Below the pieces are notes generated by a model that saw only the letters and a program-made list of their open reading frames with translations, was not told the DNA's origin and did not search any database. This document shows, piece by piece, positions 34,923-35,048 of a stretch of 64,000 bases of DNA (positions within the stretch are counted from its first letter, which is position 1; each line of letters opens with the position of its first letter). The stretch is taken from contig CABMGO010000003.1 of assembly GCA_902385655.1 (NCBI GenBank), forward strand, positions 176,456 through 240,455, read 5' to 3'. This DNA is from an uncultured archaeon (GTDB taxonomy: Archaea; Nanobdellota; Nanobdellia; Pacearchaeales; GW2011-AR1). Position numbers and translations under genes: made by a program.

Positions 34923-35048
34923 GTAGGTCGTTTTTCGAATAGTTTCGAACTTTCAGTTCGACCGAAAAAAACCGTTAGCGGTTGCGCCGTAAAGTTGCAA
35001 CCTTGCCATTTTTTCTCAAGTAAACTTTCGAAAAATATGTCAAAATGG
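34923..35048. repeat. structured intergenic element copy B between pheS and pheT
   Basis: Homologous to copy A on the opposite strand; stems covary. Confidence 0.8.

What the first reader, a model, noticed from the sequence alone, without database searches (positions are those of the whole stretch)
34923..35048. Second structured element family (copies A and B), copy B separating pheS from pheT
B aligns almost gaplessly to the reverse complement of 11000-11128. Stem 1 GGTAAC/GTTACC (A) vs GGTTGC/GCAACC (B) has two compensatory changes with an 11-nt loop in both. Stem 2 CCAAAC-TTTCA-GTTTGG vs TCGAAC-TTTCA-GTTCGA has two compensatory changes with the loop identical. A small CCG-NTAG-CGG hairpin is conserved. 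Both copies lie downstream of one gene and end immediately before an ATGG. No convincing flanking gene duplication at B.
Basis: partly seen in the sequence, partly recalled or inferred. Interest (0 to 1): 0.8.

Follow-up and report, generated by a model that had tools for sequence, protein, structure and literature searches.

The report
Start-codon-inserted RNA repeats with relay ORFs
A small archaeal genome carries at least 37 copies of a short, strongly folded repeat, each sitting directly in front of a gene's start codon; most can be read through by ribosomes as a tiny extra gene that stops at the next start codon, which suggests a jumping element that avoids damage by passing ribosomes on.

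Summary
B (34923-35048) and A (11000-11128, minus) are two of at least 37 copies in this 836-kb archaeal genome; a third, short copy lies in the window at 57689-57783 (minus). I found no credible copy in 57 related genomes, in genome/viral pattern scans, in phages or plasmids, or in Rfam. Each copy has P1 (nested hairpin), a GWUAGC linker, P2 and P3. In the first 10 copies, 18 of 34 pairs changed on both sides and 95% of cells pair (0 of 500 shuffles). All 37 copies end directly before an ATG/GTG; ten sampled downstream genes are genuine (uL3, uS12, uL18, SBDS, SecY and others). Relatives have pheS abutting pheT, so B is an insertion; A duplicates the 60-nt end of its upstream gene. In 28 of 37 copies an upstream start codon opens an ORF that crosses the whole element and stops near the next start codon: 20/20 operon-internal copies versus 8/17 others (p=2e-4). 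Best reading: a mobile palindromic element that targets start codons and carries a pass-through mini-ORF preserving translational coupling. Coupling and mobility are inferred, not shown.

The parts
34923..35044 (+). Element copy B, between pheS and pheT (class I, P1+P2+P3)
   Evidence: R1 132 bits, R2 70 bits; pheS and pheT adjacent without it in relatives
34926..34973 (+). P1: outer helix 34926-34937/34963-34973, inner hairpin 34945-34950/34956-34961 with UUUCA loop
   Evidence: 15 of 17 pairs with changes on both sides over 21 aligned matches
34974..34979 (+). Conserved single-stranded linker GUUAGC (G-W-U-A-G-C)
   Evidence: Near-invariant in alignments A2-A4
34980..35002 (+). P2: GGUUGC / GCAACC, loop 11 nt here, variable inserts elsewhere
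35003..35043 (+). P3: UUGCCAUUUUU / AAAAAUAUGUCAA, ends 1 nt before pheT AUG; its 5' strand can instead pair perfectly with AAAAUGGCAA over the start codon
34896..35057 (+). Pass-through ORF of copy B (MAGNKKNHIVGRFSNSFELSVRPKKTVSGCAVKLQPCHFFSSKLSKNMSKWQH*); in-frame ATG also at 34893; stops 10 nt inside pheT
34896..34901 (+). Upstream copy of ATGGCA (downstream copy 35045-35050), probable target duplication
   Evidence: Sequence; relatives have pheS stop followed by ATGGCA
11004..11128 (-). Element copy A (class I): P1 11125-11078, P2 11071-11049, P3 11048-11005
   Evidence: R1 129 bits, R2 77.5 bits
11130..11189 (-). Upstream copy of the duplicated gene end MDEIKLRMTRIDNDVFNRI* (3' end of gene X, 11130-11810)
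10944..11003 (-). Downstream copy of the same 60 nt, directly after the element; 14 nt and 12 of 20 codons differ, all synonymous
10985..11152 (-). Pass-through ORF of copy A, starts inside the end of gene X in another frame
57689..57783 (-). Element copy C (short class): P1-like helix, GACAGC/GCUGUC, UUGCGAA/UUCGCAA with GGAGG in the loop; mini-ORF MTCNKFALLIAVKNNSDSSINLLSCEGGRFAK* (57783-57685) starts at ATGA overlapping the upstream stop and ends at ATGA overlapping the next start
   Evidence: R2 61 bits
33382..34896 (+). pheS (class II Phe-tRNA synthetase core domain)
35045..36676 (+). pheT, start codon immediately after the element

Best explanation
B belongs to a family of dispersed, structured repeats that insert at ATG(G/A) sites, mostly gene start codons inside operons, and leave the element followed directly by a start codon. 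The old start codon (or a new one overlapping the upstream gene's stop) opens a mini-ORF that crosses P1, P2 and P3 and stops within about -11 to +25 nt of the new start codon, so ribosomes from the upstream gene melt the P3 helix at the start codon and restart on the downstream gene. The element thus behaves as a start-codon-targeting palindromic repeat made nearly harmless by relaying translation. Shown here: copy number, covarying structure, position at start codons, pass-through ORFs above chance and always in operon-internal copies, and absence of the element from the pheS-pheT junction of relatives. Inferred: transposition, actual translation of the mini-ORF, and reinitiation.
For: 37 copies, all directly before ATG/GTG; ten sampled downstream ORFs match known families, several starting within residues 1-6 of the protein. 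Covariation 0/500 shuffles. Pass-through ORF counted in 27/37 against 7.0 +/- 2.2 (max 16) in dinucleotide shuffles, plus one GTG start missed by that scan, so 28/37; operon-internal 20/20 vs other 8/17, Fisher p=2e-4, or 9e-4 without tandem copies. Frames differ between subfamilies (phase 2 in 21, phase 1 in 7 copies) and the linker-to-ATG length varies mostly by multiples of 3 (51, 57, 63, 69, 72, 81, 123), so passage rather than one peptide seems kept. Empty pheS-pheT junctions in relatives. Duplicated upstream-gene ends at A (60 nt) and C5:279982 (MVAQ*), weaker at C2:36586. Copies in tandem x3 and x2, joined exactly at ATGA. ATGA-type overlaps give termination-reinitiation in archaea (PMC6728339).
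Against: No expression or ribosome data. Nine copies, all in promoter-proximal or unclear settings, lack a full pass-through ORF. The operon class was assigned by hand. Target duplications are unequal (0 to 60 nt), and the anchored test is only p=0.012, driven by a few copies. No dedicated transposase was identified: the only Y1 transposase gene has other hairpins and no element beside it. Copies share descent, so they are not fully independent, and both models were built on copies ending in ATG.
Confidence: 0.6

Rival explanations
1. A shared cis-regulatory leader (riboswitch, attenuator or protein-binding operator) that controls a regulon including pheT, uL3, uS12, uL18, SBDS and SecY, with P3 switching access to the start codon.
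For: Strong covarying RNA structure abutting the start codon; several downstream genes serve translation; in B the 5' strand of P3 can pair with the pheT AUG.
Against: Other targets are unrelated (MFS, NrdR, glycosyltransferase, radical SAM, PIN); whole helices and loops are swapped and expanded, leaving only the short GWUAGC linker as a possible binding core; tandem copies; no counterpart in relatives.
Confidence: 0.18
2. A DNA-level hairpin repeat (REP/MITE-like) whose palindromes are kept by ssDNA transposition or template-switch repair; the RNA fold and ORFs are by-products.
For: Wobble is almost absent: 8 G-U of about 599 paired cells, against 114 cells changed on both sides, as expected if both arms are copied together or helices are exchanged between copies; one Y1 transposase gene exists in the genome.
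Against: Does not explain exact placement before start codons in one orientation, nor pass-through ORFs in 20/20 operon-internal copies.
Confidence: 0.15
3. A family of real mini-genes encoding a conserved functional peptide (e.g. MTNTKLIAFAVVKLDSVNSTSSLTCEGNRFAK).
For: Short-class peptides are similar across about 14 loci with clean ATGA-to-ATGA ORFs.
Against: Different subfamilies read different frames through the same DNA; no protein family match and no homologues outside this genome.
Confidence: 0.05

Closest known systems
Rickettsia palindromic elements (RPE) and Wolbachia counterparts
   Same: Dispersed, 100-150 bp, palindromic, carry an ORF read together with host genes (PMC2229807, PMC10969869)
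   Different: RPEs insert in frame inside genes and become part of the protein; here the element sits between genes, directly before the start codon, as a separate overlapping mini-ORF
ERIC/IRU/RU-1 and other prokaryotic MITEs with ORFs
   Same: Small non-autonomous repeats with stable RNA folds, ORFs and target duplications (PMC2759123, PMC2229807)
   Different: No terminal inverted repeats and no TA target; three separate helices in series; start-codon placement; unequal flanking duplications
REP/RAYT and IS200/IS605 hairpin ends
   Same: Hairpins kept by compensatory change; a Y1 transposase gene is present in this genome
   Different: The IS200-like copy has unrelated hairpins; REPs are extragenic and not tied to start codons
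Translational coupling by termination-reinitiation at ATGA overlaps
   Same: Stop/start overlaps and structure-gated downstream starts, tested in Haloferax and E. coli (PMC6728339)
   Different: Known cases are ordinary adjacent genes; here a dispersed repeat supplies the overlap on both of its sides

Membership tests
Conserved structured RNA | Base pairs maintained by compensatory changes beyond shuffled controls | tested here: met
Rfam families (release 15) | Match above gathering score | tested here: not met
   only miRNA/snoRNA noise far below threshold
MITE | Multiple dispersed short copies in one genome | tested here: met
MITE | Terminal inverted repeats | tested here: not met
   Three helices in series; P1 5' end and P3 3' end do not pair in the covarying structure
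MITE | Constant-length target site duplication | tested here: inconclusive
   0-60 nt; clear at A and C5:279982, weak elsewhere
MITE | Parent transposon sharing the ends | tested here: inconclusive
   Y1 transposase gene with other hairpins; no TnpB-type zinc-ribbon domain (PF07282) or reverse transcriptase; other transposases not searched
Rickettsia palindromic element | In-frame insertion inside host proteins | tested here: not met
   All 37 copies end directly before a start codon
Rickettsia palindromic element | Palindromic repeat with a translatable ORF | tested here: met
Riboswitch/attenuator | Conserved ligand-binding core and related downstream genes | tested here: not met
   Only GWUAGC and helix ends conserved; downstream genes unrelated
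Translational coupling by termination-reinitiation | Upstream ORF stop overlapping or within a few nt of the next start | tested here: met
Translational coupling by termination-reinitiation | Downstream translation depends on upstream translation | not testable with these tools
   Needs reporters or ribosome profiling

The most novel reading that the evidence does not exclude
A class of mobile element that targets translation start codons and is built as a ribosome relay: it captures the original start codon for its own mini-ORF, supplies a new start codon to the gene, and keeps an open path in whichever frame it lands, so that operons including pheST and ribosomal-protein genes tolerate dozens of insertions.
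Probability: 0.4. Interest if true: 0.85.

Novelty: new variant of a known kind. Interest (0 to 1): 0.72.

Why it matters
If right, it shows a way for selfish repeats to live in compact, operon-rich genomes: entering exactly between stop and start and passing ribosomes on. It makes translational coupling testable with dozens of natural insertions in one genome, and shows how small overlapping ORFs can arise. It also warns that automatic annotation of such genomes will call many false short genes or wrong start sites.

Tried and rejected
CCG/CGG hairpin: conflicts with P1 and P2 and is not conserved. Two weak model hits in relatives (G036, G025; 22-24 bits) lack the features and were taken as background. 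Pattern scans of GTDB genomes and IMG/VR gave only matches without a P2 helix. Phage and plasmid collections: no match. Integron attC sites, HEARO/IscB RNA and group II introns were considered from memory and set aside: no Rfam match, and no TnpB-type zinc ribbon or reverse transcriptase in the genome. Single-sequence folding alone is unconvincing (z -2.3, -1.7 and -0.5); the case for structure rests on covariation.

Full report
WHAT IS THERE. A search of the whole genome (G000, 836,207 bases, 8 contigs) with B found many partial copies. A covariance model of ten full copies (R1, 134 positions, 34 pairs) and one of the 3' half (R2) bring the list to 37 copies, including a third one inside the window on the minus strand (57689-57783). 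Rfam has nothing like it.

STRUCTURE. P1 is a long nested hairpin: GGNC then UUUUUCG paired with CGAAAAA and GNCC, around an inner hairpin with a UUUCA-type loop. A near-invariant G-W-U-A-G-C linker follows. P2 (GGUUGC/GCAACC and variants) carries inserts of different length in different copies. P3 (UUGCGAU.../...AUCGCAA) ends one nucleotide before the start codon. In the first ten copies 95% of cells pair and 18 of 34 pairs show changes on both sides, against 10.0 +/- 1.7 in shuffles (0/500); sliding the partner by one column drops pairing to 48-56%. With all copies the result stands. Wobble pairs are almost absent (8 of about 599 paired cells, against 114 cells changed on both sides). That is unusual for a purely RNA-level constraint and suggests that helices are also exchanged or repaired as whole units. 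Consistent with this, the same P2 and P3 types recur in different combinations.

POSITION. All 37 copies end immediately before ATG (36) or GTG (1). The models include this ATG, so they favour such copies, but with 24-135 bits a copy lacking ATG would still have been found. Most of the downstream ORFs exceed 40 codons and are host genes; ten sampled ones match Pfam families (uL3, uS12, uL18, SBDS, NrdR, ABC ATPase, SecY, glycosyltransferase, radical SAM, T2SS F), several with the domain starting at residues 1-6, so the ATG after the element is the real start. The others lead into a second copy of the element (three tandem cases, at C6:64493-64743 and C5:252571-252763) or into short remnants of the upstream gene or tiny ORFs.

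INSERTION. In relatives pheS abuts or nearly abuts pheT; for example G035 has ...TTTTGGATAAAATAA|ATGGCAACAATA; in some relatives another gene precedes pheT, and none of those examined has the element. In our genome the pheS end is AAATGATGGCAGG, then the element, then ATGGCAACATTA: ATGGCA occurs on both sides. At copy A the last 60 nt of gene X, starting at an internal ATGG, stand on both sides of the element; 14 nt and 12 of 20 codons differ, yet every change is synonymous, including the stop. In relatives this C-terminus is a conserved family feature and the next gene follows directly, often by an ATGA overlap. C5:279982 duplicates MVAQ*; C2:36586 duplicates a similar stretch more weakly. 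No credible copy was found in 57 related genomes, in pattern scans of GTDB genomes and IMG/VR, in phages or plasmids, and the mini-ORF peptides of two copies have no homologue outside this genome. The family therefore looks young and lineage-specific. The mover is unknown. One IS200-type Y1 transposase gene is present (C1:18460-18804), with its own unrelated hairpins; no TnpB-type zinc-ribbon domain (PF07282) and no reverse transcriptase were found.

THE PASS-THROUGH ORF. In 28 of 37 copies a start codon at or upstream of the element opens an ORF that crosses all helices and stops between -11 and +25 of the next start codon (the scan counts 27, and one GTG start at C5:246167 was added). Shuffling the element sequence gives 7.0 +/- 2.2 of 37 (max 16 in 500). 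In the short class the ORF typically begins at an ATGA that overlaps the upstream stop and ends at an ATGA that overlaps the next start; three such units stand in tandem at C6:64493-64743. Inserts of very different length keep the frame: the linker-to-ATG distance is 51, 57, 63, 69, 72, 81 or 123 nt in most, and one copy with two extra inserts remains open for 93 codons. Subfamilies use different frames through the same linker (21 in one phase, 7 in another), so the peptide itself is not what is conserved. I classed a copy as operon-internal when the upstream co-directional gene stops within about 40 nt of the element with no obvious promoter between. All 20 operon-internal copies have a pass-through ORF, against 8 of the 17 others (Fisher p=2e-4; 9e-4 without the tandem copies). 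This classification was mine and was not blind.

HOW IT MOST LIKELY WORKS. P3 and the sequence around it hold the start codon in structure; in B the 5' strand of P3 can pair perfectly with AAAAUGGCAA over the pheT AUG. Ribosomes leaving the upstream gene start the mini-ORF, open the helices, stop at or next to the start codon and restart. Coupling by termination-reinitiation at ATGA overlaps, and opening of start-site structure by upstream translation, are established in archaea and bacteria (PMC6728339). Promoter-proximal copies do not need the relay and often lack it. Translation and coupling are inferred here, not measured.

COMPARED WITH WHAT IS KNOWN. Small palindromic repeats with ORFs are known in bacteria: Rickettsia palindromic elements, ERIC/RU-1, Correia (PMC2229807, PMC2759123, PMC10969869). 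Those either lie between genes or are read as part of host proteins. Exact placement before start codons, with an overlapping mini-ORF on both sides, is not described in the papers I found. I therefore call it a new variant of a known kind. That the organism is an archaeon of the DPANN kind is my inference from genome size and gene content; the genome carries no name here.

Noticed in passing
window 10944-11003 and 11130-11189 (minus): The two 60-nt copies of the gene X end differ at 14 nt, all synonymous, so both seem held at the amino-acid level although the downstream copy is an orphan 19-codon ORF. Unexplained.
   Followed up: partly
window about 10925 (minus), gene following copy A: The gene after copy A seems to start at ATC where relatives have ATG; no ATG/GTG/TTG is available in frame nearby.
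   Followed up: partly
window 47490-47860 (minus): A tRNA-Glu-like 3' half and two copies of its 5' half (47640-47699, 47798-47857): probably an intron-containing tRNA with a partial duplication, not called by ARAGORN.
   Followed up: partly
window 8633-8701 (+) and 15069-15137 (-): Another 69-nt repeat pair (78%) with the conserved core TTGGAGAGTGTAGAACAAAAATATGCAGGAC, possibly a different structured RNA family.
   Followed up: no
G000 C1:18460-18804 (L141): A compact IS200-like element with a Y1 transposase gene and hairpins near both ends.
   Followed up: partly
C5:30364-30550 and C5:133790-134056: Two copies share an extra internal hairpin insert (GAACTCACAAAATGCATTTCG...GCATTTTGTTCA), which may be a second repeat family nested in the first.
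   Followed up: no
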